Of a stretch of DNA of 64,000 nt, positions 6,560 through 37,824 are shown one piece after another. Position 1 is the first letter of the stretch. Each line of letters starts with the position of its first letter. The position numbers were made by a program, and so were the translations under genes. The notes under the pieces are model-generated. The model made no database searches. It saw only the letters and a program-made list of their open reading frames with translations, and was not told where the DNA came from. The DNA is from a virus, in the IMG/VR virus record IMGVR_UViG_3300037258_001185, positions 1 to 64,000 of that record, one strand, 5' to 3'.

Positions 6560-7147
6560 CTACTCCAATTGCGGCGCCACGCGCCGCATGTTCGGGCCGT
6601 CCGACGGGCCGCTGAAATGGACGGTCACCGATGCGGCCTCACGGGCCGCGCGCATTGCGCGAAGGCGCGCCGTAACCCCGTCTGGACCCTCAGGGCCATA
6701 GCGCCCTGTGCTATCGAGCAGCACGGCCCGCGGGTTGCGCCCGAGGCGCAGCCCGAACATCAGCGTGTCCCACGCCTCGCGGTGGTCGGAGCGAAAGAAC
6801 GGAAGGGGCGCGGCCCATATCGCAAAATCGTGCTGCGGACCGCGCAGCGCGGCGGGATCGTCGACGCTATAGATCTCGGAGACGGCGCCGGTCGGCCAAG
6901 AAAGGCGCGCGCGCGGCCAGTCCACCGCGGGGAGCGAAGGTGAGAAATGCCACATGAAGGCCAGATCGCCCGTCACACGATCAGCGGTGGTCACCAGGGC
7001 GATGCGTTTGCGCTCGTCGGCGATGGCCGCAAGCATGAGATCGTGAAGCGCAAGCCGACGCGGGCGCGCGACCCGCACAATGTCGATCTGGAGGCCGACA
7101 TTGTTCTCGGCGAGCCAAGAGGCGACACGGGAGGTTGGATCGGTCAT
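6560..7147 (-). CDS. Terminase large-subunit-like protein without ATPase motifs
   Basis: 195 aa. It aligns by eye with the ATPase domain of this phage's own TerL (49495-50922): KRIALV at 47-52, SWPTGA at 83-88, LRGPQHDF at 101-108, and EAWDTLMFGLRLGRNPR at 124-140, the last matching TerL at 15 of 17 positions. The Walker A P-loop region is missing, and the Walker B acidic pair of TerL (WCDE) reads IWAA here. The nuclease domain is absent. The gene is intact and coupled on its start (ATGA) to the IS110-like gene, so it is not obvious debris. A non-enzymatic role such as packaging modulation or interference is inference. Confidence 0.7.
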   Translation of the reverse strand: MTDPTSRVASWLAENNVGLQIDIVRVARPRRLALHDLMLAAIADERKRIALVTTADRVTGDLAFMWHFSPSLPAVDWPRARLSWPTGAVSEIYSVDDPAALRGPQHDFAIWAAPLPFFRSDHREAWDTLMFGLRLGRNPRAVLLDSTGRYGPEGPDGVTARLRAMRAAREAASVTVHFSGPSDGPNMRRVAPQLE

Positions 7148-8454
7148 CCGGCGTCTCCTTGCGGATTGCGATGATCCCCGAGAGCGGCGGCAGGATTACG
7201 ATGGCCTTGCGGCACTCCGGGGCTGGCCGCCACGCTCGGGGATGGGGTCAGAAGGGCATCGGCACCGGTACAATGGCCTTGCGGCAGGAACTCCTTGGCC
7301 TTTGCTCTCCTGGTGGGCTTGGCGCGGACGCCGGTCATCACGGACATGGCGGTGTCCGCGCCGATCAGGGCCGAAGCGGAGTCGGCATAGGCAGTCGGGC
7401 CTTTCGGCAACCTTCGGACGGCGTTCTCCGCTTCGGTTTGGTTCGGGGCGCCGGCGGCAACGGTCGCATGGCCTTGCGGCATCAACCAATCGGCCTCCGG
7501 CGCCCCGATCTCTTGTGCCGCGACCTCGGCGTGCCAGACACGCCACAGGTCGCGCAATACGCGCTTGGCCATGAGGCGCCGGGCGGCCATGTCGGCGTGC
7601 GCCGGCGTCCATTTGTCGGGGTTCTTCTTGCCGCCGAGCTCGGCCGGCAGGTCCGCCGTGGCGGCGACGCGCAGCGTGTACCGCGCCTTCGCCCGCCCAT
7701 AGACCTCGCCATAGGGGCCGATCGCGTGCGCCTCGGCAACAATGCCGAACGGCTCGGCGAGTTCCCTCAACTCCTCTATCTTCTTGACTTGCTTCAGGTC
7801 GATGTCGCGGCGCTGGATTTCCGCAGCGGCGGCCGGGTCATCCTCCAGCGCCTTACGGTAAGCGCCGACCTCACTGCACCATTGCTGCCTCAGCATGGCA
7901 TCATAGATGCCGACATAGATGGCGGAACGCCGCCACTTGTGCATCTGGCGTACCGCCGTCTCGTTCTCTCCCGCGCCCGCGAACCCCAGACCGAGCCGCT
8001 TCCACATTTTCGAATGGGAGGGGAAATCGGACAGACCCCGGTCCTGCGCGCCGTGGCAATGCGCCACGATCACGGCAAACGTCAGATCGCCAAACCCATT
8101 GACGGACCTGACCCAGGCGTAGGCCGGCAACTGCGGCGCCAGCCGCTCCATTTGCCGCTCGATCTTTTTCCTCTCCTTTTCGAACAGGGCGACCGCCACC
8201 AATGCGGCCATGACCGCGCCGCGCCAGGCCCCGGCCGTGTTCTCGGCGCCCTCGGCATCTGCCTTGACCGCAGCGACGATCTGACGGGCGCGTGCCGCGA
8301 TCTTCTCGCTTTCGGCTTTCGACAGGTCGCTGCGCCACCCGAGGGCGCTGCGAAGTTGTCCTCCCATGCGATTTGAAATCGCCGTCGTTTGACTGACGAG
8401 GCCGGCCCTGACCCGATTGAGTCCGGCCAAGGCCTGCACCGCGTCGCTCAGCAT
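7144..8454 (-). CDS. IS110-type Transposase_20-like protein lacking the RuvC-like domain, with palindrome-encoded C-terminal repeats
   Basis: 436 aa. After an N-terminal helical region (1-105), residues about 108-180 match the IS110/IS116 C-terminal transposase pattern: VRSVNGFGDLTFAVIVAH, FPSHSKMWKRLGLG, and MHKWRRSAIYVGIYDAM, with a later ADMAARRLMAKRVLRDLW helix. The N-terminal DEDD (RuvC-like) domain of IS110 transposases is absent, and the usual Ser-Gly-Gly stretch after the LGL motif reads GAGEN. The last 110 residues contain four repeats beginning xPxGx, each from one palindromic DNA element. Probably a domesticated transposase relative used in phage recombination (inference). Confidence 0.65.
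   Translation of the reverse strand: MLSDAVQALAGLNRVRAGLVSQTTAISNRMGGQLRSALGWRSDLSKAESEKIAARARQIVAAVKADAEGAENTAGAWRGAVMAALVAVALFEKERKKIERQMERLAPQLPAYAWVRSVNGFGDLTFAVIVAHCHGAQDRGLSDFPSHSKMWKRLGLGFAGAGENETAVRQMHKWRRSAIYVGIYDAMLRQQWCSEVGAYRKALEDDPAAAAEIQRRDIDLKQVKKIEELRELAEPFGIVAEAHAIGPYGEVYGRAKARYTLRVAATADLPAELGGKKNPDKWTPAHADMAARRLMAKRVLRDLWRVWHAEVAAQEIGAPEADWLMPQGHATVAAGAPNQTEAENAVRRLPKGPTAYADSASALIGADTAMSVMTGVRAKPTRRAKAKEFLPQGHCTGADALLTPSPSVAASPGVPQGHRNPAAALGDHRNPQGDAG
7174..7243. repeat. In-gene palindromic element, copy 1
   Basis: Arms 7174-7190 and 7227-7243 pair at 14 of 17 positions. The core ATGGCCTTGCGGCA lies at 7201-7214. On the minus strand it encodes VPQGHRNPA near the end of the IS110-like protein. 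Confidence 0.75.
7262..7300. repeat. In-gene palindromic element, copy 2 (core only)
   Basis: Same 14-base core at 7273-7286 (ATGGCCTTGCGGCA), encoding LPQGHCTGAD on the minus strand. I could not find complementary arms, so this copy has probably decayed. Outer limits are approximate. Confidence 0.55.
7371..7436. repeat. In-gene palindromic element, copy 3
   Basis: Perfect 11-base arms CCGAAGCGGAG (7371-7381) and CTCCGCTTCGG (7426-7436) around the core GGCCTTTCGGCA at 7398-7409, encoding LPKGPTAYAD on the minus strand. Confidence 0.8.
7444..7507. repeat. In-gene palindromic element, copy 4
   Basis: Arms 7444-7458 and 7493-7507 pair at 14 of 15 positions; core ATGGCCTTGCGGCA at 7468-7481, encoding MPQGHATVAA. 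It starts 7 bases after copy 3. Confidence 0.8.
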
Positions 8455-9227
8455 GACAGACCTCCGGCGATGCGCAGCGCCTCCGCCATGATCGCCTCGG
8501 TGATCTGGCTGCGGATCGGTTTGCGCGGGTCCGCAATCAGGCTGCAGAGCGCTTTGGCGAGCGCGAGGTTGCGGCCCGTCCGCTCAGCCCAGGCGCCGAC
8601 CTCCTCGGTCGTGCAGTCGAGCATCGAGCGGCCGTTGACGCGAACTTCCTCAAATTCGGGATGGGCGGAACTGCGGACCGCAGCGGCGGCGTGCATCGCC
8701 CGCAAGCGACCCTGCTGGATTTCTTCACTCGGCGCCGGGGGCGAAACAGCGGTTGCTTGGCCTTGCGGCACTCGGTTGCTGGCCTCGCCCCCGGCATGGG
8801 TTGCCGTTCCCGGATCTGCATTACGGCTCGGGCCTCGCGGCAATCCGGTTCCGGCCTCTCCGGGAACGGCATTTTGTCCGACCCGCGCATCGGCATCTGT
8901 AGCCTGGCCTTTCGGCAAAGATGCCGTGGCCTTTGCGCGGGTCGGTGTGGTTTCGCCTTTGCGGCGAATTTCGTCGTCGAGCGATTTGTTCAGCGCCGGG
9001 CGGCTTGCACCGCAGTATTCCCACAGGATCGCCTCCGGGTCGGCGTCCCGGCTGACGCAGAGCCGGAAATAGCCGTCGTTGCCATCGACACCGAACAGTC
9101 GCACCTCATCGCGCCGGATCACCTTGAGGCGTTCCCGCGGCGTCAGCGGCGGCTCTGGCTGTATCCTTGAAACGGCGCGCCGCAACTGGTCGTTGACCTG
9201 TGCTTCCAATTCACTTTCCCCCATCAT
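8448..9227 (-). CDS. Repeat-containing hypothetical protein (259 aa)
   Basis: N-terminal region of about 85 residues, a middle made of three consecutive palindrome-encoded xPxGx repeats (about residues 95-165), and a helical C-terminal domain containing FEEVRVNGRSMLDCTTEEV. I associate the overall design, a small C-terminal domain preceded by such repeats, with rhizobial phage proteins, but know no function. ATG at 9227 chosen; the frame is open to 9251. It overlaps RecT upstream and the IS110-like gene downstream. Confidence 0.65.
   Translation of the reverse strand: MMGESELEAQVNDQLRRAVSRIQPEPPLTPRERLKVIRRDEVRLFGVDGNDGYFRLCVSRDADPEAILWEYCGASRPALNKSLDDEIRRKGETTPTRAKATASLPKGQATDADARVGQNAVPGEAGTGLPRGPSRNADPGTATHAGGEASNRVPQGQATAVSPPAPSEEIQQGRLRAMHAAAAVRSSAHPEFEEVRVNGRSMLDCTTEEVGAWAERTGRNLALAKALCSLIADPRKPIRSQITEAIMAEALRIAGGLSC
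8734..8795. repeat. In-gene palindromic element, copy 5
   Basis: Perfect 11-base arms GCCGGGGGCGA (8734-8744) and TCGCCCCCGGC (8785-8795); core GGCCTTGCGGCA at 8759-8770, encoding VPQGQATAVS in the 259-aa protein. Confidence 0.8.
8802..8871. repeat. In-gene palindromic element, copy 6
   Basis: Perfect 12-base arms TGCCGTTCCCGG (8802-8813) and CCGGGAACGGCA (8860-8871); core GGCCTCGCGGCA at 8831-8842, encoding LPRGPSRNAD. Confidence 0.8.
8878..8945. repeat. In-gene palindromic element, copy 7
   Basis: Perfect 12-base arms CCGACCCGCGCA (8878-8889) and TGCGCGGGTCGG (8934-8945); core GGCCTTTCGGCA at 8906-8917, encoding LPKGQATDAD. Confidence 0.8.
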
Positions 9228-10140
9228 CACGGGCTGCCGCCGCCGAGGCATCGGGATTTCGGCCTTCCGGCATATTCCTTATGGCCTCGGCGGCGCCCTC
9301 GGTCGTGGCGTCCATCAGGAAATCAGTGTTGGTGACGGTCGGCGCCGCCGGCGGCAGGTCGCGCACCTCTTCGAGGATCGACAGGCCGCCGAGGTTATCC
9401 ATGAAGCCGGCGCGCAGCGCGATCGCCGTCGCCCGGACCATCAGCATTTCGCCCGGCGCGTTCATCCACCACGGCCGCTTCGGGTTGCGCCACAGACCGG
9501 CCCGGCGCGCGTCACGGATCGAGTAGCGGCCGACATAGGGCTCGCTTTGGCCGCGGCGCCAGATGCGGTAATCGGCGCTAACGGCGTCGGTGAACTCGGC
9601 CAGGGTGTTCTCGTCGCGGACATCGTCGGGGACGCCGAGCAGCTTGCGCTCGACCCGCTCGACCAAGCCGCCGCGCTGCGCCAGGGCGAGCGCGCCCGCA
9701 CACAGAATGCAGTAGCGGCCGTCCTGCAGGATGATCTTGTCGAGCGCCGTCGAAGGCGGCATGCCGAGGTCGGCGCCCATGCGGATCGCGACGACGAGGC
9801 GCGCCTTTGTCTGCTTGTCGTTACCCGTGACGACGAAGGTGTTCGGCACCGTGCCGGCGCGGATCAGCTCAATCGCCCGCTGGCCGGCCTCGCGCGCGGT
9901 GACACGCGGGGGCGCATACCCGGCCTTGATACGCTCCGGCGTATCGGCAGGATTCGCAAATCCGGCCCGAAGCGGCGCGGGCGCCGCCGGCCTTTCGCGC
10001 ACTTGTGAAGCGCCCCGGTTCCGGCCGCCTTTGTCGGTCAGGCCATCCGACAAAACAACGCGGCCGACAACGAGATCCCCATCACAAACATGCGTATCTT
10101 GCGCTTTTTGTTTGCCGACCGAGGCGCTGATAACGGACAT
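9211..10140 (-). CDS. recT: RecT-family single-strand annealing recombinase
   Basis: 309 aa from the ATG at 10140. Residues about 90-265 carry the RecT pattern: an AIRMGADLGMPPSTALDKI block, GRYCILCAGALALAQRGG, RYSIRDARRAGLW, and PGEMLMVRATAIALRAGF before an EEVRDL motif. RecT proteins anneal complementary single strands and work with a 5'-3' exonuclease; a RecE-like exonuclease lies at 11421-12497. The C-terminus ends with a palindrome-encoded repeat, an addition to the normal fold. Confidence 0.88.
   Translation of the reverse strand: MSVISASVGKQKAQDTHVCDGDLVVGRVVLSDGLTDKGGRNRGASQVRERPAAPAPLRAGFANPADTPERIKAGYAPPRVTAREAGQRAIELIRAGTVPNTFVVTGNDKQTKARLVVAIRMGADLGMPPSTALDKIILQDGRYCILCAGALALAQRGGLVERVERKLLGVPDDVRDENTLAEFTDAVSADYRIWRRGQSEPYVGRYSIRDARRAGLWRNPKRPWWMNAPGEMLMVRATAIALRAGFMDNLGGLSILEEVRDLPPAAPTVTNTDFLMDATTEGAAEAIRNMPEGRNPDASAAAARDDGGK
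9236..9297. repeat. In-gene palindromic element, copy 8
   Basis: Arms 9236-9249 and 9284-9297 pair at 13 of 14 positions; core GGCCTTCCGGCA at 9261-9272, encoding MPEGRNPDAS at the C-terminus of RecT. It also lies just upstream of the start of the next gene. Confidence 0.75.
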
Positions 10141-10142
10141 TC

Positions 10143-10541
10143 TCAGACGCCTTTTCCCGCGTCCGGCGCCGCCTCGGCGGCCACTTCGATCTCCGTTGCC
10201 GCCAGCCAGCGCCGCAGGATCTCGTCGCTGGTTTGCGCGTTGTCCGCGTTCTTGACGGCGCCATTGACACTGCGGATCAGCTCCATGACGCCGGCAAGGG
10301 TCGCCTGCCCGAGGCCGGCGCTCTGCCGGCCGTGTTGAGCGGCCCATTTGATCATCGCCGCCACGGTGTCGCGCGCATCGGAAACCACGGCCGGGTTTTC
10401 GTCGTCAAGTTCGCGCAGCGTCGCCCACAGCCAGACCAGGGTCGGCGCGTGACGATCGCGTCCGAGAAGTACGAACATCGGCTCGTCCGGCTCCGCCTTG
10501 TCGTAGCAGTCGCACTCGCCTGGATTGCTCTTTGTTGCCAT
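10143..10541 (-). CDS. Hypothetical protein (132 aa)
   Basis: ATG at 10541, ending 2 nt before the RecT start. N-terminal GECDCYDKAEPDEPMFVLLGRDRHAP, then a helical body. The 'DEPxFxLLGRD' pattern recurs in small phage proteins near recombination genes (recalled, not searched). No catalytic motif. Confidence 0.65.
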   Translation of the reverse strand: MATKSNPGECDCYDKAEPDEPMFVLLGRDRHAPTLVWLWATLRELDDENPAVVSDARDTVAAMIKWAAQHGRQSAGLGQATLAGVMELIRSVNGAVKNADNAQTSDEILRRWLAATEIEVAAEAAPDAGKGV

Positions 10542-11420: not shown

Positions 11421-12497
11421 CTAGGCGGCCGCCAGATAGGCCGGAAATTCCAGATGGTCGAAGGTGTCGATATCGCTGATATCGACCCACGGATCGGTGC
11501 CGAACGACTGCCAGCACTCGGCGAATTTGCGCATTCCCTCGGCGATCTCGATGCGCGCGACATCGAGGACGCTGCCCTCGCCGAGCACCATGCCGCGCGC
11601 GACCGCCGCCGGGCCCTTTTGCTGAAAGACAAACATGAAGGTGTGCAAGTCCGACTGCTCGGCGAGGGACTTGATGAAGCCGCGGTCGACCTCGCCGGAG
11701 ACGCGGCCCTCGGCGGCGAACCGTCGCGCCTGGAAGGCACCTCGCAGATAGAGCGCGGCCTGGATATGGTAGGCATGGTTCGCCACGGCGTTGGCGATGG
11801 CGCGCCGCACCGGAATGCGGTTGATGTTGGCGAAGGACTTCAGGTCGACGATCGCCAGCGGCTTCAGGTAGTCGAAGCGGCATTTCAGAGGGACGCCGGT
11901 CTCCTCGTCGATCCAGAACACGGAGACCTGCGGCAGGCCGCCAGTGAATGCGCGGCGCAGTTGCGGGTGGTTGTCGATCATCGCTGCGGCGAGCTCGATC
12001 CGCCGCACGGTCTCGGCCGGCAGGAACTCCCGGCCCGGGTATTTCCCCTCGTGTTCGCGCTGAATCGTGTCCCAGACCTGGGCAGCCGGATCGACGTCGG
12101 CCAGCCTGGCGATCAGCTCAGACTTGCGCTGCGATTTCGTGGCCTTGAGACCGAGTTCGACGAGGACCGCCGCCAACTGCTCGTTCGTGCGCAACGCGTT
12201 CGGATGGGCAGCCGGATCGAGCGCTGGCGCGTAGAGCGCGTCGAACGCCGCCTTGCCCTCGACGATCCGCTTGTCGTAGGCCCGGCCGTCCCGCAGCGCG
12301 ACGGTGTCGCGCGGCTCGCGCTCGGGATTGAGGATGCTGTCGACCCAGAAGTCGAGGGTCGATATGCGGATGTTCCGGATGCCGCTCGACGACAGCGCGA
12401 GGGCGCCATGATATTGCTCGTCAGGCATCCCGAAATAAATCCCGGGCTCGACCGTCAGCGGATGGTTGACCGATATCGGGTAGGTCCAGTCGCTCAA
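11421..12497 (-). CDS. RecE-like PD-(D/E)XK exonuclease (DUF3799 type)
   Basis: 358 aa. N-terminal GIYFGMPDEQYHGALALSSS and FWVDSILNPER are typical of the DUF3799/RecE-like nucleases. The catalytic core is PLKCRFDYL (Asp) followed by AIVDLKS (D-x-K). Expected to resect dsDNA 5' ends to feed RecT, forming a RecE/RecT-type recombination pair within the same operon. Confidence 0.85.
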   Translation of the reverse strand: MSDWTYPISVNHPLTVEPGIYFGMPDEQYHGALALSSSGIRNIRISTLDFWVDSILNPEREPRDTVALRDGRAYDKRIVEGKAAFDALYAPALDPAAHPNALRTNEQLAAVLVELGLKATKSQRKSELIARLADVDPAAQVWDTIQREHEGKYPGREFLPAETVRRIELAAAMIDNHPQLRRAFTGGLPQVSVFWIDEETGVPLKCRFDYLKPLAIVDLKSFANINRIPVRRAIANAVANHAYHIQAALYLRGAFQARRFAAEGRVSGEVDRGFIKSLAEQSDLHTFMFVFQQKGPAAVARGMVLGEGSVLDVARIEIAEGMRKFAECWQSFGTDPWVDISDIDTFDHLEFPAYLAAA

Positions 12498-12808
12498 TGT
12501 GGCGTCCCTCCCCAGATGATCGAGGCCAATTCCAATCCGGCGTAAACGGTGAGCGCCATACCGGCCACGGCGGCCATAGCTGTGGCAGTGATCCAGCCGG
12601 CCTCAGTCGCGCGCGAGTCGGCGACAACCGGCGGGACAGGGCGCTTCAAAACGAGGAGATTGCCGAGGCGCCCAGAAACGGCGCACAGCTCCCAGCCATC
12701 GTCACCGAAGGGCACGAGCCGCTCGGAGAGGCTAAGTTCGGTGAAATTCAGGTCGAGGGTCCGATATTCCCACCGCCCCGTCACAGTCTCCGCCGCATCC
12801 CGGCTCAT
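12494..12808 (-). CDS. DUF4177-like protein with C-terminal membrane segment
   Basis: 104 aa. Residues 12-56 (WEYRTLDL, GDDGWELCAVSG, LLVLKRP) match the small DUF4177 beta-fold. Residues about 70-98 form one hydrophobic helix, so the protein is probably membrane-anchored. Overlaps both neighbours by 4 nt. Confidence 0.65.
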   Translation of the reverse strand: MSRDAAETVTGRWEYRTLDLNFTELSLSERLVPFGDDGWELCAVSGRLGNLLVLKRPVPPVVADSRATEAGWITATAMAAVAGMALTVYAGLELASIIWGGTPH

Positions 12809-14109
12809 GCTGCGGCCTCCTCCGGCAGGAGGGCGCCGACAACCGCGCCGTCGTCGATCACAATGCCGGTCGCGGCGGCGCCGTCACTGACACGCTCCAG
12901 CCAGAGCTGGTAGCCGTTGCCGGCGACCACTTCGGACAGGATGCGCAGGCTGTCATCGTCGAGCAACGAACCGTCACGTACGCAAAGGACGCGAAGGTTG
13001 GGATTCCCGGCCATGGCGATACCGACCGAGACCCGGATTTTTTCCGCCTGACTCGCCTGATTGAACGGCAGCCCGCGGTACATCACCTCGCCGTCGCCGA
13101 AGCCGAGTCCTTCGACCGGGAATTGCGCCCGACCGATCGCATCGGCCTTCTGCTGGTCGCAGGCTTCAATCGCATCGGTAAGCGTGCGCGATTGCGTCTC
13201 CAGGATATCCGCTTCGGCCTCTACCGTGCTCCGTCTGACACGTTCGGCGATGGCGGCGTTGGTCTGCTGCGCCGCGCCGATCGCGACGGCGAGCGCCGCG
13301 GTGTCAGTCGGCTCCGGCAGTGGCGGCAGCGCGGCGATGTTGACAAAGATCGCCGTCCGGTCACTTTCCAAGTCGCGGATGTCGCTCCACAGTTTGCGCG
13401 CCTCCTGCAGCAGCGTCTTGCGCCGCGCGCGGAGCTTCAGGGACTCGGTGCGCTGGCGCTCGACATGCTGATTCATACCGGCGCGCCGGGAGCGTTCACG
13501 CTCAACCCCGCGATTGTGCTCGCTGGCCCGCGCCACCTCGGCCATCAACGCCTCAGTGTCGACCGGCGTCGCCGGCAGGTCGGCGGCAACCTCGATACCC
13601 GCCGCCTTGCCGCGCAGCGCCTGCGCCTCACGGTTGACGTCGGTGCGCTGCGCGTAGTGCGTCGCACGCTGCTCGGCGAGCTCGTCAAGGTTGATGTCGA
13701 GGTGGACGAAACGGCGCAGTGTCTCGATCTGCTCCTTGGGCCGCATGCGGGTGAACGCGAGAGGATCGAACGATATCGTCCCGATCAGCTTGTCGAGCAC
13801 CGCCTGCGGGCTCGGGAACCGAGCGCCATTGTGCTGCGCGACGGTGAGGGGCGAGTTGCCGCTCGGCAAGAAACGCCGGGTGACGATCAAGTCGCCGAGA
13901 TCAAGAGTAATCTCGGCGCGGTCGGTGCCCTCGCGGATCGGGCGCGACGGGGCGACATCGGCGCCTCCGAGCGCCGCCCAGATCGCGTCGAGGACCGAAC
14001 TCTTGCCCTGGCCGTTGCGGCCGCGGATTTCGACAATCGGCCCCTCGGGCCTGATTGCCACGGCCCGCAGCCTTTTGAAGTTCTCGGCGGCGAACGATAC
14101 GATCTGCAT
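12805..14109 (-). CDS. RecF/SMC-like ATPase
   Basis: 434 aa. N-terminal ABC-type half: FKRLRAVAIRP, then Walker A GRNGQGKSS at residues 30-38. The centre (about 150-290) is a charged coiled coil. The C-terminal half has an NQASQAEKIRVSVG signature-like motif and an LRVLCVRDGSLLDDDSL Walker-B-like strand. A short RecF/SMC arrangement common beside RecE/RecT in phages; probably binds DNA ends or forks. Confidence 0.82.
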   Translation of the reverse strand: MQIVSFAAENFKRLRAVAIRPEGPIVEIRGRNGQGKSSVLDAIWAALGGADVAPSRPIREGTDRAEITLDLGDLIVTRRFLPSGNSPLTVAQHNGARFPSPQAVLDKLIGTISFDPLAFTRMRPKEQIETLRRFVHLDINLDELAEQRATHYAQRTDVNREAQALRGKAAGIEVAADLPATPVDTEALMAEVARASEHNRGVERERSRRAGMNQHVERQRTESLKLRARRKTLLQEARKLWSDIRDLESDRTAIFVNIAALPPLPEPTDTAALAVAIGAAQQTNAAIAERVRRSTVEAEADILETQSRTLTDAIEACDQQKADAIGRAQFPVEGLGFGDGEVMYRGLPFNQASQAEKIRVSVGIAMAGNPNLRVLCVRDGSLLDDDSLRILSEVVAGNGYQLWLERVSDGAAATGIVIDDGAVVGALLPEEAAA

Positions 14110-14573: not shown

Positions 14574-14653
14574 CACGTCACCACCGTCAGGCCGTAGAGG
14601 AAGACGAACACGGCGACGCCGAGCGCCACGACAGTAATGACGCGCTCGGTCAT
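14573..14653 (-). CDS. Tiny single-span membrane protein (26 aa)
   Basis: Reads MTERVITVVALGVAVF and onward: one hydrophobic helix after a short charged start. Overlaps genes on both sides (ATGA and TGATG), which supports real translation despite its size. Confidence 0.55.
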   Translation of the reverse strand: MTERVITVVALGVAVFVFLYGLTVVT

Positions 14654-15213
14654 GCCGCCCTCGCGCTCGGCGCGTCGGGGTCTTGGCCGGCGGCCCGGAT
14701 GACGGCGCGGTCGAGCAGGAATTTATGAGTCCGGGTCAATTCCGCGGCCGCCTCGGGATTGACCCGCGCCGCATGCTCGGCTGCCCAGCCGAGCATGGCG
14801 CGATGATATCGGCACAGCCGCCGTTGATAATCCTGGTCGGCCTCGTCGCTCTTTCGCTTGGACTCCCAGGCCGCATGAGAGAGGCCGAGGGCGGCGCCCC
14901 CGAGGGGCTCTGCGGGCGGGTCGACATAACCCTCCGGCACGGGGACAAACCCCGCTGCCGCGGCGATGCGATAATCGGCCTCGGAGCGCCCGGCGCGGAC
15001 CCGGCTGCCGCCGAGATAGGTCGCAAGAACCTCAATGACCGCGTCGGGGCAATCGCGATGCACGACCCTATCGCCAACAGCAAAGCAAGGCGGCTCGCCG
15101 ATGGGTGCCGGCTCGTCGCGCTCCGGCATTGGGTCGGGGATGCGGTCGGGACCGAACGGCGGCGCCTGCACGGGCGGCGCGTCATCGTAGGAATTTCGCG
15201 GCTGTGCGGCCAT
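14650..15213 (-). CDS. Hypothetical protein, first gene of the leftward operon (187 aa)
   Basis: N-terminal Pro-rich stretch, then a short beta-barrel-like segment (VGDRVVHRDCPDAVIEVL) and a helical C-terminal half. It is the first gene after the leftward early promoter at 15243-15271, so it is likely expressed early after infection or induction. Confidence 0.65.
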   Translation of the reverse strand: MAAQPRNSYDDAPPVQAPPFGPDRIPDPMPERDEPAPIGEPPCFAVGDRVVHRDCPDAVIEVLATYLGGSRVRAGRSEADYRIAAAAGFVPVPEGYVDPPAEPLGGAALGLSHAAWESKRKSDEADQDYQRRLCRYHRAMLGWAAEHAARVNPEAAAELTRTHKFLLDRAVIRAAGQDPDAPSARAA

Positions 15214-18779: not shown

Positions 18780-19837
18780 CGGTAACAATCCTCATCGGCG
18801 ACGCGCTGCGGCATCTGCGGCAACTGCCGGGTGACAGCGTCCATTGCCTCTGCACGTCGCCGCCATACTGGCGGCAGCGCGATTATGGCGTCCCCGATCA
18901 GCTCGGGCTTGAAGGGACTCCTGAGGGCTATGTCGCAAAGTTGACCGAGGTCTTCCGCGAGGCGAGGCGGGTGCTGCGCCCGGACGGCGTCTGCTGGATC
19001 AACATCGGCGACAAATGGGCAGCAAGCGGTCAAGGGGGAGGCGCCCAAAGCAAGGAGCACGCATACGGATCGGTTCCCGACGCCGCCAAATCACGAGAGT
19101 GGCGCAAGCCGCCGCACGGCTACAAAGATAAGGATCTGCTCGGACTTCCTTGGATGCTCGCCTTTGCGCTCCGGGCCGACGGATGGTGGCTCCGGCAATG
19201 CAATATTTGGGCGAAGCCGAACGGGATGCCCGAGTCGACGCGGGACCGCACGACAACCGCCCATGAATATGTGCTGCACCTGACGAAATCGGCCGAGTAT
19301 TGGTACGACAGCGCCGCAACCCGCTTGCCCGCAGTTCCCGAGAGCGTCGGCCGCCTCGAACGCGCGATGCGCGCCAGCCTCGATGCCGGCGCTTTCGTGA
19401 TCAGCGGCAGCGGATATGAACCGCCTGGGCAGCCCCCGCACCAGGGAGCGCGCCGCACCGATAAGCAGCGCGGGCACACCAGACGGCACGCCGGGTTCAA
19501 CGACCGCTGGGACGCGATGTCCCGCGCCGAACAGCAAGGAAAGGGCTCGCAGCTTCGTTCCGTCTGGTGGTTGCCAACCGCCAACTTCGCGGAGGGCCAT
19601 TTCGCGGTCATGCCGGAAGAGTTGGCGGCGATTTGCGTGCTCGCGGGGTGTCCGGCCGGCGGCACGGTTCTCGATCCATTTGCGGGCGCCGGCACCACCC
19701 TGATGGTAGCCGACCACCTCGGGCGCGATGCCATTGGCATCGAATTGAACCCGGCGTTCGCCGCCATGGCGGAGAGGCGCGTCAAAGAGCCTGGCCTGAT
19801 GCTCGATGCGGCACCGACGGCGGAGCGCGCTGCGTGA
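18776..19837 (+). CDS. DNA methyltransferase, beta class (SPPYW)
   Basis: 353 aa from the GTG at 18776, overlapping the upstream stop. The catalytic motif SPPYW is near residue 28; the SAM-binding motif DPFAGAGTT is near the C-terminus (about 305). This order (catalytic first) is the beta class of amino-MTases (N4-C or N6-A). Probably an orphan modification enzyme against host restriction; no partner endonuclease is visible. Confidence 0.88.
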   Translation: MTVTILIGDALRHLRQLPGDSVHCLCTSPPYWRQRDYGVPDQLGLEGTPEGYVAKLTEVFREARRVLRPDGVCWINIGDKWAASGQGGGAQSKEHAYGSVPDAAKSREWRKPPHGYKDKDLLGLPWMLAFALRADGWWLRQCNIWAKPNGMPESTRDRTTTAHEYVLHLTKSAEYWYDSAATRLPAVPESVGRLERAMRASLDAGAFVISGSGYEPPGQPPHQGARRTDKQRGHTRRHAGFNDRWDAMSRAEQQGKGSQLRSVWWLPTANFAEGHFAVMPEELAAICVLAGCPAGGTVLDPFAGAGTTLMVADHLGRDAIGIELNPAFAAMAERRVKEPGLMLDAAPTAERAA

Positions 19838-21666
19838 CGGTTCGGGTGGAACACGACGACATGATGCAGGCGATCCCGCGTCTCGTCGCGGCGGGCGCGG
19901 TCTGCGACGCGTGCGTTTGTGACCCGCCATACCACCTCACGGCAACGCAGAAACGCTTTGGGGCGGCCAACAGCGCACCCGCGCAATACGGCCGTGACGG
20001 CGCCATGTCGCGCCTGTCCGGCGGTTTCATGGGCCAGCAATGGGACGGCGGCGACATCGCTTTCCGGCCCGAGACCTGGGCGACGGTCGCGACGATCCTG
20101 CGGCCTGGCGCCTTCCTCGTCGCGTTCGGTGGCACGCGGACCTATCACCGCCTCGCCTGCGCGATCGAGGACGGCGGCTTCGTGATCCAGGACTGCATTA
20201 TGTGGTTGTTCGCGACCGGGTTCCCGAAGCGCCGCGACATGCTCAAGCCCGCTTACGAGCCGATCGTGCTCGCCTACAAGCCGGGCGGCACGCGGACGAT
20301 GCAGGTCGATGAATGTCGAGTCGAGGGTGTGGTGCCCTCGACCACGCAGGGACAAGCTATTTCGGCGGGCGTCATCTACGGCAATGATCAACGCACGCTC
20401 CGACAATTAAATGGGCATAACGCCGGCCGCTGGCCCTCCAATGTCGCCACGGACGGCAGCGACGAAGTGCTCGCGGCGTTCCCGCAGAGCGCCGGGCAGC
20501 AGGGCGACGTGCGCGGCAGCGAGCCGAGCGCCACGGGCGATAACGGCATCTACGGCCATTTTGACCGCGTGCCATTCAACAAGCGTGTCGGCGAGGCGTC
20601 TGCAGAGCGGCGTTACACCGATGCCGGTTCCTCTGACTCCGCGATGCTGCCCGGCGCGCGGCGCGGTGACGCTGGCTCCGCCGCTCGATTCTTCTTTTCG
20701 GCACAGCCAGCCCCGGCCCCATGCGATCTTTGCGGGTGGCCGCGTGACGGATTTACAGGGACAATGGCCGAATGCAATGCACCTGTATCCAGCGCGGCCA
20801 GCACTTCATCGCAACCGGCCATAAATCCGAAGCCGCCCGCTTCTGTTCCAGGCGATGTTCCGGGCTATTTACTGCTCGGCGACGGGGACACGAGCCGAGC
20901 GTCGAGCGCCCCTGCGAGCAATGCGGGAAGCCATTCATCGCCCCACCATCCGACCACGCCAAGTTCTGCTCCGTTGCCTGCCGAGGTTTGGCCGCTGTCA
21001 AAGATCGTCCAAAATGTGGAGTCTGCGGCGCATCTGTGCGGCTCATGCGCAACCGCTATTGCTCAAAGTCTTGCAGCGTCAAGGCTCGGCCTCGCCCCGG
21101 AGTTACCACCCTTTCCGGCGTCTATATCCGAAACATCAAGGCAAATCCTGACCCGCAGCCTTGTGCTATATGTGGCGGGCCGGGAAAGCACAGACACCAT
21201 CCTGACTACGCCGAGCTTGAGCGAATTGTTTGGCTCTGTGTTCCATGCCATCGCCGAGAACATCAACTCGGAAAGAAACGTGGGAAAGGTGAATATCGGG
21301 TCCGGCCAGAAACGATTCCATTTCTCAAGTAAGGCCCAAAAATCTGATCGTTGGGGCAGCCGCCACCCGACAATTAAACCGGTCGAGTTGATGAAGTGGC
21401 TGGTGAAATTGGTTTGCCCCGAAAATGGGACGCTGCTTGATCCGTTTGCCGGCAGCGGCACGACGGGCGTGGCCGCCCTTGCCACCGGCCGCAATGCGAT
21501 CCTGATCGAACAGCAGGCCGCTTACGTCGCCGACATTCACGCGCGCCTCGACCACTACCGCGGCGAGGGGCGCCATTCCCTCGCCGTCAAGAACAGGTCG
21601 CGCGGCGCCCAGCCGGCGGAAGACGGCGACCTGTTCTCATGCGCAACCAAAGAGGATGCCGCATGA
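19834..21666 (+). CDS. DNA methyltransferase, beta class (DPPYH), with 209-codon internal insertion
   Basis: 610 aa from the GTG at 19834. DPPYH at residues 30-34, DPFAGSGTTG near 545. Uninterrupted relatives normally run from a RFF(F/Y)xAK motif straight into an (S/D)R.GSRHPTxKP motif. Here the frame stays open across an extra 209 codons (about 20704-21330; residues about 291-499) between ARFFFSA and KAQKSDRWGSRHPTIKP. That stretch carries an HNH gene in another frame. Whether the enzyme is active with the insertion is unknown. Confidence 0.82.
   Translation: MTVRVEHDDMMQAIPRLVAAGAVCDACVCDPPYHLTATQKRFGAANSAPAQYGRDGAMSRLSGGFMGQQWDGGDIAFRPETWATVATILRPGAFLVAFGGTRTYHRLACAIEDGGFVIQDCIMWLFATGFPKRRDMLKPAYEPIVLAYKPGGTRTMQVDECRVEGVVPSTTQGQAISAGVIYGNDQRTLRQLNGHNAGRWPSNVATDGSDEVLAAFPQSAGQQGDVRGSEPSATGDNGIYGHFDRVPFNKRVGEASAERRYTDAGSSDSAMLPGARRGDAGSAARFFFSAQPAPAPCDLCGWPRDGFTGTMAECNAPVSSAASTSSQPAINPKPPASVPGDVPGYLLLGDGDTSRASSAPASNAGSHSSPHHPTTPSSAPLPAEVWPLSKIVQNVESAAHLCGSCATAIAQSLAASRLGLAPELPPFPASISETSRQILTRSLVLYVAGRESTDTILTTPSLSELFGSVFHAIAENINSERNVGKVNIGSGQKRFHFSSKAQKSDRWGSRHPTIKPVELMKWLVKLVCPENGTLLDPFAGSGTTGVAALATGRNAILIEQQAAYVADIHARLDHYRGEGRHSLAVKNRSRGAQPAEDGDLFSCATKEDAA
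20772..21332 (+). CDS. HNH homing-endonuclease-like gene nested in the methyltransferase
   Basis: 186 aa in the +2 frame relative to the host gene. Four zinc-binding Cys clusters are visible: CSRRC, CEQCGKPF...FCSVAC, CGVCGAS...YCSKSC, and the HNH unit CAICGGPGKHRHHPDY followed by IVWLCVPCHRREH. These conserved motifs show the HNH frame is the evolved one and the host-frame reading of the same DNA is secondary. The stop TAA lies exactly at the right insertion border. Confidence 0.85.
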   Translation: MQCTCIQRGQHFIATGHKSEAARFCSRRCSGLFTARRRGHEPSVERPCEQCGKPFIAPPSDHAKFCSVACRGLAAVKDRPKCGVCGASVRLMRNRYCSKSCSVKARPRPGVTTLSGVYIRNIKANPDPQPCAICGGPGKHRHHPDYAELERIVWLCVPCHRREHQLGKKRGKGEYRVRPETIPFLK

Positions 21667-35529: not shown

Positions 35530-37824
35530 TCAATTCCCCATGATGGCGGTGACGAGGGCGCAGGCCGTATTGACGGGCACCGCGTTGCCGATCTGCTTGG
35601 TGATCTCGGTCTTCGTCCCGACGAACTCGTATTCGATCTCTCCTTCGCTGAAGCCCATCGCCCTGGCCAACTCCTTCGGATCGAGCATGCGGAAGCGGAT
35701 GTCATAGCGGCGCTCGCCGGCGGCGCCCTCGACCAGTTGCACGCGGCCGGCGGCGCAGATCGTCGGCGCCGGGTCGTCGATGCTGTGCACGCGCGGCGCC
35801 TGCCCTGGCCGCTCGCCAAAGGCGGCGGCGATGAAGGCCAGCTCGCCGCGCGGCGCGGCGGTGATCGTCGGCAGCGGATCATCTGGCGAGCGGACGCGGC
35901 CCTTGTCGCCGCCGTGCGTGACCGGCATGACCAGCGCGAACTCGCCGCCCTTGGCCGTCGTCATGGTCGGCAGCGGGTCGTCGATCGCGCGCGGGCCCGG
36001 GCCGCCGGTGCTGTTCGTGACCGGGACGACGAGGCCGAAGCGTGCCTTGGTCGTGACGGTCGGCAACGGCGTCTCGGTCGAGCCGCAGGTCTCGCCCGAG
36101 CCCGAGCCGTAATAAGGGGCGATGAGGGCGTGGGCGCCGCCGTGGCCGCCCGTAGTGATCGTTGGGACCGGCTGATCAACGCTGCGCGGCGCGCCGCAAG
36201 AGGCTTGCGAAAGCACGAACGGCTGGACCACGGCGATTTGCGATTTCGTGGTCAGCGCCGGGACTGGATCGCCGATCGCCGATGGCACATTGCCATCGCG
36301 CATTGCCGAGACGAACGGCTCGACGATGCCGAACTTCCCTCCTCCGGCGTGGATGGTCTGCAGCGGGTCGTCCAGGCTGCGGCACCGCCGGCTATCGGGA
36401 TCGCGCTCATGCGCTGGGTTGCCATGCGCCAAGGTCGCGATAAACGGCTCGACGACCAGCGGCTCGCAGAGAAACTGGCCGCCGCCGGTTGTCGTGGTGA
36501 TCCCGCCGACCGGATCATCGACGCTCTTCGGCGTGTTGTTGGTCCGGTTGCCGCAGACGAACGGATCGAGGCGCCATTCCTCGCCGCAGCGCGGGCATTC
36601 TGGCGACGACAAGCCTCCTGGCTCACTTCCGGCGTACCTATCGGTGAACATCTCGCCGCAGGCCTGACAACGCCATGCGGTCGTCGGCTCCACCATATAG
36701 CCGGCGCCGCGGCAGTCAGCCGTCGGCATCGGCTCGTCGAGCGGATGCGCACGGGTCGCGCCGTTGTCGCCATGCCGGTTCAGGATGAACGGCTCGACGA
36801 CGGCCGGCCGCGCGCACCCGGGGCGCCGCTCATTCGAGGCTCCCCCCGTGGTAATCGTCATCAACGGGTCTTCGACCGAGCGCGCCGCACCGCTGCTGCT
36901 GTTCGACAGCGTGAACGGCATGGGCACAGCCAGCGCGATATGCGTGCCGCCGGCGCAGATCGCCGGGACCGGCTCGTCGATGCTTTGCGCGTCCATGTGG
37001 TTACGCAGGATGACGAGGAACGGATCAGGCCACTTGAATTTGACGGCGCCGGCGTAGATCCGCGCCAGCGTCTTCGGGCTGAGCGGCCGCTTGCGGTCGA
37101 AGATCGACTTGCCGGAGAGCGACCAGTCGATGATTTCTCGGGCCGCACGCCATTTCTCGGTCGCATGGCCGAGCAGGTCGCCGACGGCGCCCTTGCGGCT
37201 GTGGGTCGGCGTCGGCCAGACGATGCGTTTGCCGTCCGACCGCGCCATCAGGAAGAAACGCTCGCGGGTCGTCGCGTCGCCAAAGTCGGCAGCGTTCAGG
37301 ACGCGCCACTCAACCTTGAACCCGGCGCCGCGCAGCGCGTTGACCCAGGCGAGGAAATACTCGCCCTCATGGCGCTTTGACGGCCGGCCAGTGCGCAGGT
37401 TGACCCTCCCCCAGCGCACAAATTCCGGGACGTTCTCGACGATCAGTCGCTTGATCCTGAGCTCGGTGCACCAGTGGATGATCGCCCACGGGTCCATGCG
37501 CTGCTGGTCGTTGATCGGCTTGCCGCCGCGGGCGCGCGAGTGATAGGTGCAGCTCGGGCTCGCCATCAGCAGGTCGAGCTTGCCCTCGGGGACCAGTTCG
37601 ATCGGCTTGGCGACATTGACGTCCTGGCAATAGTGACGCGCCTCCGGGTGATTGCGGCTGTGGGATTCAATGGCGAGCGGCCAATGGTTGACGGCACAAA
37701 GGTCCATCCGGTAGCCAAGGCCGAGCAGAGCCCGGCGCGCGCCGGTCGAACTGCCGCCAGCTCCGCAAAACAGATCGGCGACTAGCGCGGTGCGGGTCGG
37801 GGCCGGGAGCGTGTCATGCGGCAT
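35530..37824 (-). CDS. C5-cytosine DNA methyltransferase with long repeat array
   Basis: 764 aa. Motif I LFCGAGGSSTGA near residue 20, catalytic motif MASPSCTYHSRARGG near 90-103, motif VI VENVPEF, and C-terminal motif X QIGNAVPVNTA. Between them (about 270-715) lie eleven repeats of the type (I/V/L)DDP(L/V)PTITT, spaced about 35-40 residues, plus a CQACG...CPRCG zinc ribbon near 405-435. The array sits where target recognition domains are expected. Confidence 0.88.
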   Translation of the reverse strand: MPHDTLPAPTRTALVADLFCGAGGSSTGARRALLGLGYRMDLCAVNHWPLAIESHSRNHPEARHYCQDVNVAKPIELVPEGKLDLLMASPSCTYHSRARGGKPINDQQRMDPWAIIHWCTELRIKRLIVENVPEFVRWGRVNLRTGRPSKRHEGEYFLAWVNALRGAGFKVEWRVLNAADFGDATTRERFFLMARSDGKRIVWPTPTHSRKGAVGDLLGHATEKWRAAREIIDWSLSGKSIFDRKRPLSPKTLARIYAGAVKFKWPDPFLVILRNHMDAQSIDEPVPAICAGGTHIALAVPMPFTLSNSSSGAARSVEDPLMTITTGGASNERRPGCARPAVVEPFILNRHGDNGATRAHPLDEPMPTADCRGAGYMVEPTTAWRCQACGEMFTDRYAGSEPGGLSSPECPRCGEEWRLDPFVCGNRTNNTPKSVDDPVGGITTTTGGGQFLCEPLVVEPFIATLAHGNPAHERDPDSRRCRSLDDPLQTIHAGGGKFGIVEPFVSAMRDGNVPSAIGDPVPALTTKSQIAVVQPFVLSQASCGAPRSVDQPVPTITTGGHGGAHALIAPYYGSGSGETCGSTETPLPTVTTKARFGLVVPVTNSTGGPGPRAIDDPLPTMTTAKGGEFALVMPVTHGGDKGRVRSPDDPLPTITAAPRGELAFIAAAFGERPGQAPRVHSIDDPAPTICAAGRVQLVEGAAGERRYDIRFRMLDPKELARAMGFSEGEIEYEFVGTKTEITKQIGNAVPVNTACALVTAIMGN

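What the first reader, a model, noticed from the sequence alone, without database searches (positions are those of the whole stretch)
7174..9297. Family of in-frame palindromic elements in three adjacent genes
Eight copies of a core close to GGCCTTGCGGCA sit in the IS110-like gene, the 259-aa gene and recT. Seven have arms of 11-17 bp that pair perfectly or almost so, while arm sequences differ from copy to copy, so pairing is kept although sequence is not. All copies read in the same frame and give xPxGx repeats in the proteins. This resembles the in-gene palindromic elements of Rickettsia in principle, but core, size (62-70 bp) and host genes differ. Possible roles: selfish palindromes tolerated in linkers, structured mRNA elements, or sites for the IS110-like protein encoded in the cluster.
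Basis: partly seen in the sequence, partly recalled or inferred. Interest (0 to 1): 0.85.

Follow-up and report, generated by a model that had tools for sequence, protein, structure and literature searches.

The report
Phage guide-RNA units inside protein-coding genes
The odd palindromes in these phage genes are guide-RNA cassettes of a recently discovered RNA-guided DNA-binding system (TIGR-Tas), and instead of sitting between genes they are written in frame inside the protein-coding genes of the system, so one stretch of DNA appears to encode both protein and programmable guides.

Summary
In detail: eight units at 7174-9295, all on the minus (coding) strand. Seven have complementary, sequence-variable arms. 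They are not Rickettsia-type insertion palindromes. Each unit is stem-GG[CCA]-N9-[TG]CC-GNRA-GG[CCA]-N9-[TG]CC-stem', the anatomy of a stem-loop tigRNA unit (box C CCA, box D UG, two 9-nt spacers; Faure et al. 2025, PMC12045711). The 'IS110-like' gene is a Tas protein (NCBIfam TIGR_Tas_endo 8e-20; best structure matches TasH and TasR). It has no nuclease domain, so it is TasA-like. Of 17 records recovered with the unit's DNA pattern alone, 11 carry a Tas gene. Arms covary (95 of 132 pairs against 43.5 in shuffles).

The new part is the location. In the window and in most of 76 related phage Tas loci, units lie in frame inside the tas ORF's N- or C-terminal tail, or in the linker of a conserved upstream partner gene. 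In the window, recT, partner, tas and the next gene overlap, so no non-coding room remains. Spacers almost never start on a codon boundary. I propose that the operon mRNA doubles as the guide precursor. No spacer target was found; processing and translation were not shown. Known system, new variant.

The parts
7174..7243 (-). stem-loop tigRNA unit 8 (tas C-terminal tail); spacer A GCCCCGGAG, spacer B TCGTAATCC; loop GCAA
7247..7320 (-). unit 7 (tas tail), boxes and spacers intact but outer stem weak; spacer A AGGAGTTCC, B TTGTACCGG; loop GCAA. Outer limits approximate
   Evidence: z -1.3
7371..7436 (-). unit 6 (tas tail); spacer A TCCGAAGGT, B GACTGCCTA; loop GAAA
7443..7508 (-). unit 5 (tas tail); spacer A ATTGGTTGA, B TGCGACCGT; loop GCAA
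8734..8795 (-). unit 4 (partner-gene linker); spacer A GCAACCGAG, B AGCAACCGC; loop GCAA
8802..8871 (-). unit 3 (partner-gene linker); spacer A GAACCGGAT, B GAGCCGTAA; loop GCGA
8878..8945 (-). unit 2 (partner-gene linker); spacer A CGGCATCTT, B GGCTACAGA; loop GAAA
9238..9295 (-). unit 1 (last codons of recT, overlapping the most upstream possible start of the partner gene); spacer A TAAGGAATA, B AAATCCCGA; loop GGAA
7144..8454 (-). tas gene, 436 aa; conserved Nop/IS110-like core about aa 2-316, then a disordered tail carrying units 5-8; no nuclease domain (TasA-like)
   Evidence: NCBIfam TIGR_Tas_endo E 8.3e-20; AF2 model and Foldseek: TasH/TasR are the five best hits
8448..9251 (-). partner gene, 267 aa (259 aa from the ATG at 9227): helical N-terminal part, disordered unit-bearing linker about aa 101-160, folded C-terminal domain; family of unknown function conserved upstream of tas
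9211..10347 (-). recT-like gene (378 aa); unit 1 lies beyond its conserved region
   Evidence: phrog_561 E 3.8e-6 over aa 186-337
6560..7147 (-). next gene of the operon (195 aa, unknown); its ATG (7147-7145) overlaps the tas stop TGA (7146-7144), so the tas ORF really runs through the units to that stop

Best explanation
The eight palindromic elements are stem-loop tigRNA units of a phage TIGR-TasA system. Shown by sequence: each unit is an outer stem of variable sequence, then box C (CCA), a 9-nt spacer A, box D (UG), a short GNRA hairpin in place of the loop repeat, box C, a 9-nt spacer B, box D and the other strand of the stem; the neighbouring 'IS110-like' gene encodes a Tas (Nop-fold) protein with no nuclease domain; and the units are written in frame into the protein-coding sequence of the recT-partner-tas operon, in linkers and tails (the partner linker and tas tail are predicted disordered), as is also common in related phages. 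Inferred: the operon mRNA is both messenger and guide precursor. Tas made from it would bind the units through the box C/D motifs, a host RNase would trim each hairpin out, and the Tas dimer with one tigRNA would bind double-stranded DNA that matches spacer A followed directly (0-2 bp gap) by the reverse complement of spacer B. Having no nuclease, it would act by occupying or bending that DNA. Embedding guides in genes would save space and cause guide excision to cut the tas message, a built-in negative feedback.
For: Tas identity: NCBIfam NF052498 E 8.3e-20 and IS110 model 3.7e-11; Foldseek top five hits are TasH/TasR with probability 1.00, then IS621; all 42 aligned relatives hit NF052498. 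Unit identity: box and spacer layout as in PMC12045711; 402 of 420 units in 76 relatives have 9/9 spacers. Linkage: 11 of 17 records fetched by the unit's DNA pattern alone carry Tas; 420 units on the tas strand against 23 on the other. RNA structure: arms of units chosen by boxes only give 95 of 132 pairs against 43.5 +- 5.9, 0 of 5000 shuffles; inner hairpin varies by compensatory change, e.g. GUC-GAAA-GAC and GGC-GAAA-GCC. In-gene location: genes overlap with no gap, tas stop overlaps the next ATG; partner orthologues have conserved N and C parts with units between them in the same ORF; unit-bearing tas tail and partner linker are predicted disordered; coding potential of the tas tail is positive only in the tas frame; 0 of 55 loci have the unit listed first with spacer A on a codon boundary against 20.7% expected among stop-free units, p 2.8e-6.
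Against: The window Tas scores 71.7 bits, under NF052498's curated cut-off of 100, and Foldseek E-values are only 4e-3 to 3e-2. One of eight units (7275) has almost no outer stem. No transcription, processing or translation data. No target found: spacer pairs match the fetched phage DNA no better than mispaired controls, and three scans of viral contigs gave hits at about the chance rate. Across all loci, the first unit after the tas core is not kept open better in the tas frame than in frame +1, so C-terminal embedding is firm only where the gene layout demands it. Some N-terminal extensions may be untranslated if the true start lies downstream.
Confidence: 0.9

Rival explanations
1. Selfish in-gene palindromes of the Rickettsia/Wolbachia kind: small mobile repeats tolerated in linkers of proteins.
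For: In frame, in linkers, several copies in adjacent genes; presence/absence differences between orthologues.
Against: They occur beside one protein family, on its strand; exact 9/9 spacers flanked by CCA and UG; spacers are the variable part while boxes and stems are kept (1/18 spacer identity against 18/18 in the stems of adjacent units); ordinary tandem arrays of the same unit stand between genes in relatives. The strict unit pattern hits one stretch in 84,980 cellular genomes.
Confidence: 0.03
2. Decayed or domesticated array: the units are relics of a former intergenic TIGR array that gene fusion or readthrough carried into the ORFs, now kept only as protein linkers.
For: One window unit has a broken outer stem; two have box C departures (CCG/CCC); L037 and L040 show the same tas with and without an array in the ORF; nearby stretches can be intergenic in relatives.
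Against: Seven of eight stems are intact with low folding energy, stems covary, and spacer A/box D/loop/box C are all kept; a relic kept for the protein would lose stem pairing first.
Confidence: 0.08
3. Units only overlap ORFs by chance: the tas ORF runs on into a neighbouring GC-rich array because stops are rare, and the true proteins do not include the units.
For: GC-rich DNA with few stops; in the window another frame is also open over most of the tas tail; C-side openness over all loci does not differ from frame +1.
Against: In the window, tas must read through its units because its stop overlaps the next gene's start, and so do L037, L053 and L067; partner genes have conserved domains on both sides of units; phase 0 is avoided beyond stop survivorship; upstream openness is longer in the tas frame (median 96 codons against 48.5 and 19).
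Confidence: 0.1
4. The IS110-like gene is a real IS110 transposase and the hairpins are bridge-RNA pieces or insertion sites.
For: IS110 model hit 3.7e-11; same box C/D logic as bridge RNA (PMC12045711).
Against: No DEDD domain: the Nop core starts at residue 2, and the IS110 match covers only model positions 118-243 of 343; many short dual-spacer hairpins instead of one two-loop RNA; Tas model scores better; TasH/TasR are closer in fold.
Confidence: 0.03

Closest known systems
TIGR-Tas systems with stem-loop arrays (Faure et al. 2025, PMC12045711, Fig. 7; Peromyscus gut TasA)
   Same: Solo-Nop TasA protein; hairpin units with variable palindromic stems in place of edge repeats; two spacers flanked by box C CCA and box D UG; found in phages.
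   Different: There the array is described as subarrays separated by an intergenic region; here units are in frame inside recT, partner and tas genes. The main text does not mention units in reading frames (no hit for 'in-frame', 'intragenic' or 'open reading frame'); its supplement was not readable here. The GNRA hairpin of fixed size in the middle and the partner gene are also not described in that text as far as I read it.
TIGR-Tas with dual-repeat arrays (TasR, TasH, TasParB loci)
   Same: Same box C/D and 9-nt tandem spacers, same protein fold.
   Different: 36-nt units with conserved edge and loop repeats, arrays up- or downstream of the gene; TasR and TasH have nucleases.
IS110/IS621 transposases with bridge RNA
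   Same: Related Nop fold and an RNA loop with two guides that read opposite target strands.
   Different: Single bridge RNA, DEDD recombinase, transposition.
Rickettsia palindromic elements
   Same: In-frame palindromes within protein-coding genes.
   Different: From general knowledge: insertion elements with conserved sequence and no guide function; none of the box C/D and dual-spacer anatomy was looked for or reported there.

Membership tests
TIGR-Tas system | Tas protein with Nop domain related to IS110 | tested here: met
   NF052498 E 8.3e-20, though under the curated cut-off; Foldseek top hits TasH/TasR
TIGR-Tas system | two spacers of 8-12 nt flanked by box C (CCA) and box D (UG) | tested here: met
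   8 of 8 window units have 9/9 spacers, TG at both box D positions; box C is CCA at 10 of 16 positions, else CCG or CCC
TIGR-Tas, stem-loop array type | variable but consistently palindromic sequence in place of edge repeats | tested here: met
   7 of 8 stems; covariation in relatives
TIGR-Tas system | array near the tas gene | tested here: met
   within 0.8 kb, and partly inside the gene
TIGR-Tas system | array processed into tigRNAs bound by Tas | not testable with these tools
   needs RNA sequencing
TIGR-Tas system | spacers guide binding of DNA matching spacer A plus reverse complement of spacer B | tested here: inconclusive
   no target above control
IS110 transposase | DEDD catalytic domain before the Nop part | tested here: not met
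   core begins at residue 2; IS110 match starts at model position 118 of 343
Rickettsia-type in-gene palindromic element | dispersed mobile insertion unrelated to one host protein | tested here: not met
   units track Tas and its strand

The most novel reading that the evidence does not exclude
A class of phages has fused guide array and genes: one operon mRNA is at once messenger for Tas and its partner and precursor of Tas guides. Guide excision destroys the message that makes Tas, giving a self-limiting switch, and box C/D bases shield the reading frame so that 9-nt spacers can change freely without creating stops at their edges. Spacer turnover is confined to the spacers even between tandem copies, which points to a dedicated way of changing spacers.
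Probability: 0.3. Interest if true: 0.88.

Novelty: new variant of a known kind. Interest (0 to 1): 0.78.

Why it matters
TIGR-Tas is a newly described family of RNA-guided DNA-binding systems whose natural targets, array growth and regulation are open (PMC12045711, discussion). Guides written inside reading frames make several of these testable: whether guide release and translation exclude each other, how spacers change while the protein stays readable, and what the partner protein does. It also means that arrays of this kind are hidden in annotated proteins and will be missed by searches for intergenic arrays. To my knowledge of the papers I could search, in-frame tigRNA units have not been reported.

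Tried and rejected
Rfam search of 6900-9500: no match, so no catalogued RNA family. Solved-structure search by sequence: no hit for the Tas. The search for related loci with the window Tas alone found no relative; the DNA pattern and an alignment were needed. Target search: spacer A + reverse complement of B, gap 0-2, in about 1 Mb of fetched phage DNA gave 2 pairs with 1 mismatch and 60 with 2, against 6 and 65 in mispaired controls; no self-target in the 84 kb phage; viral-contig scans for three window spacer pairs gave 1, 1 and 6 loci, the six falling into two homologous groups, which is about chance for an 18-nt pattern. Two near-identical prophages of one assembly have identical spacers, so they give no spacer turnover data. 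Tas in cellular genomes of the order of the Bauldia hit: only that hit, 1 of 298. Structure search with the partner model gave nothing. C-terminal openness as a general test of coding was not significant against frame +1. Covariation on A7 is partly built in because those units were picked with a stem requirement; avoids that.
Full report
What is there. Eight units lie on the minus strand between 7174 and 9295. Read in the coding sense, each is stem - GG CCA - 9 nt - TG CC - GNRA - GG CCA - 9 nt - TG CC - stem', with exactly 34 nt between the closing GGC and GCC. The core alone is not above chance in this GC-rich phage, but the full motif gives 9 hits with up to 3 mismatches against 0.16 expected, with none of 100 shuffles reaching 9. 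Seven copies have stems of 10-18 bp and fold far better than shuffles; the copy at 7275 does not.

What it is. A scan of public viral contigs with the unit pattern, without regard to arms, gave 11 stretches, and a second pattern gave further ones. Many have different arms that still pair, some in dense tandem arrays. In units picked by boxes only, 95 of 132 positions just outside the motif pair, against 43.5 +- 5.9 in 5000 shuffles with none as high. On 34 units, 96.3% of cells pair, with both-side changes in 10 of 12 pairs (that set was picked with a stem requirement). The inner hairpin keeps its tetraloop while its pairs switch, for example GUC-GAAA-GAC and GGC-GAAA-GCC, which points to RNA. 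The two 9-nt stretches flanked by CCA and UG are the spacers of a tigRNA: box C = CCA, box D = UG, 9-nt spacers, and in stem-loop arrays variable palindromes in place of edge repeats (PMC12045711). The neighbouring 'IS110-like' protein hits the NCBIfam model for TIGR-Tas at 8.3e-20, below its curated cut-off. All 42 relatives aligned hit that model. Its predicted structure finds TasH and TasR first, with probability 1.00, then IS621. Of 17 records fetched by the unit's DNA pattern alone, 11 carry a Tas gene. With no domain before the Nop core, the protein is TasA-like.

Where the units sit. In the window one unit is in the last codons of recT, three are in the linker of the partner gene and four are in the tail of tas. 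The genes overlap: the tas stop TGA (7146-7144) shares bases with the ATG (7147-7145) of the next gene, partner and tas overlap by 7 nt, and recT and partner overlap. There is no non-coding room, so translation of tas must run through four units. The AlphaFold model has a confident core to about residue 316 and a tail at pLDDT 32-55; the partner model is disordered at 101-160, where its units lie, with a folded C-terminal domain behind. Codon-usage scoring supports the tas frame over its tail (0.18 against -0.25 and -0.35); over the partner linker, which is almost wholly unit sequence, no frame is favoured, as expected if RNA constraints rule there.

Relatives. A Tas-alignment scan gave 79 loci in viral contigs. 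A general unit model (loops of 26-53 nt) has a background of about one hit per 100 kb per strand at its threshold. Over 76 distinct Tas cores it finds 420 units on the tas strand and 23 on the other; 402 of 420 have 9/9 spacers. In 55 of 76 loci at least one unit lies in the open tas frame outside the conserved core: 129 units in N-tails, 51 in C-tails and 7 that overlap the core. The tas stop overlaps the next start (ATGA) in the unit-bearing tails of the window, L037, L053 and L067. Partner orthologues carry units between conserved N- and C-terminal parts, while some (L073, L053, L044) show none. Between L037 and L040 (tas 77% identical) one unit sits at the same place with unrelated spacers, and L037 has a 127-aa tail with further units where L040 stops after 22 aa. 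In L037 adjacent units share stems (18/18) and boxes (15/16) but 1 of 18 spacer positions.

Frame. In-frame units avoid the phase in which spacer A starts on a codon boundary: 2 of 180 units, and none of 55 loci counting the first listed unit, against 20.7% expected if phase were random and only stop-free units survived (p 2.8e-6). In the other two phases the box bases make the edge codons ANN/NTG or CAN/NNT, none of which can be a stop. This is a sign of a coding constraint on the array. Shared ancestry among loci weakens the p value. N-side open frames are longer in the tas frame (median 96 codons against 48.5 and 19), but C-side ones over all loci are not longer than in frame +1, so in-gene placement is firmest where gene layout or conserved flanks demand it.

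How it may work. Shown: the anatomy, the linkage, the in-frame location. Known from PMC12045711: Tas binds box C/D units, Tas is needed for processing by an unidentified host RNase, and the two spacers pair with opposite strands of one target, 0-2 bp apart. Inferred: here the operon mRNA is the precursor; releasing guides cuts the message for Tas and its partner, which would limit Tas; and the nuclease-less protein would act by occupying or bending its target. No target was found.

Limits. No expression data. The supplement of PMC12045711 could not be read here, so overlap of its stem-loop arrays with genes may have been seen there. Viral contigs are mostly metagenomic fragments, and the host of the window phage is unknown; the only strict-pattern hit among cellular genomes is a Bauldia MAG.

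Noticed in passing
L037:5890-6098: Adjacent in-gene units share stems and boxes almost letter for letter while spacers are unrelated (1/18), so variation is confined to the spacers; the way spacers are changed is unexplained.
   Followed up: partly
L106:3498-4750, L111:3499-4959, L114:4094-6784: Long stem-loop arrays in which two stem types alternate (GCGGTCGC and GCGCCCGGC), as if units came in pairs.
   Followed up: no
window 8448-9251 and partner genes in about 15 loci (e.g. L037:4445-5011, L040:4418-5011, L054:4301-5011): A conserved partner family upstream of tas, with no Pfam, PHROG or fold match, that carries guide units in its linker.
   Followed up: partly
window 35530-37824 (-) and 19567-21666 (+): Two DNA methyltransferase genes whose conserved motifs look split by long insertions of several hundred residues; no intein or HNH domain was recognised in them by Pfam.
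   Followed up: no
window 14617-14672 (+): A lone hairpin resembling a unit (score 18.5) on the other strand; about one such hit is expected by chance.
   Followed up: no
window 12805-14109 (-): AAA/SbcC-like ATPase of phrog_1499 beside exonuclease VIII-like (11421-12497) and recT genes: a recombination module next to the TIGR operon.
   Followed up: no
L021:9671-11640: A 129-kb phage contig with about 20 units in a mostly intergenic array downstream of tas, useful as a non-coding comparison.
   Followed up: partly
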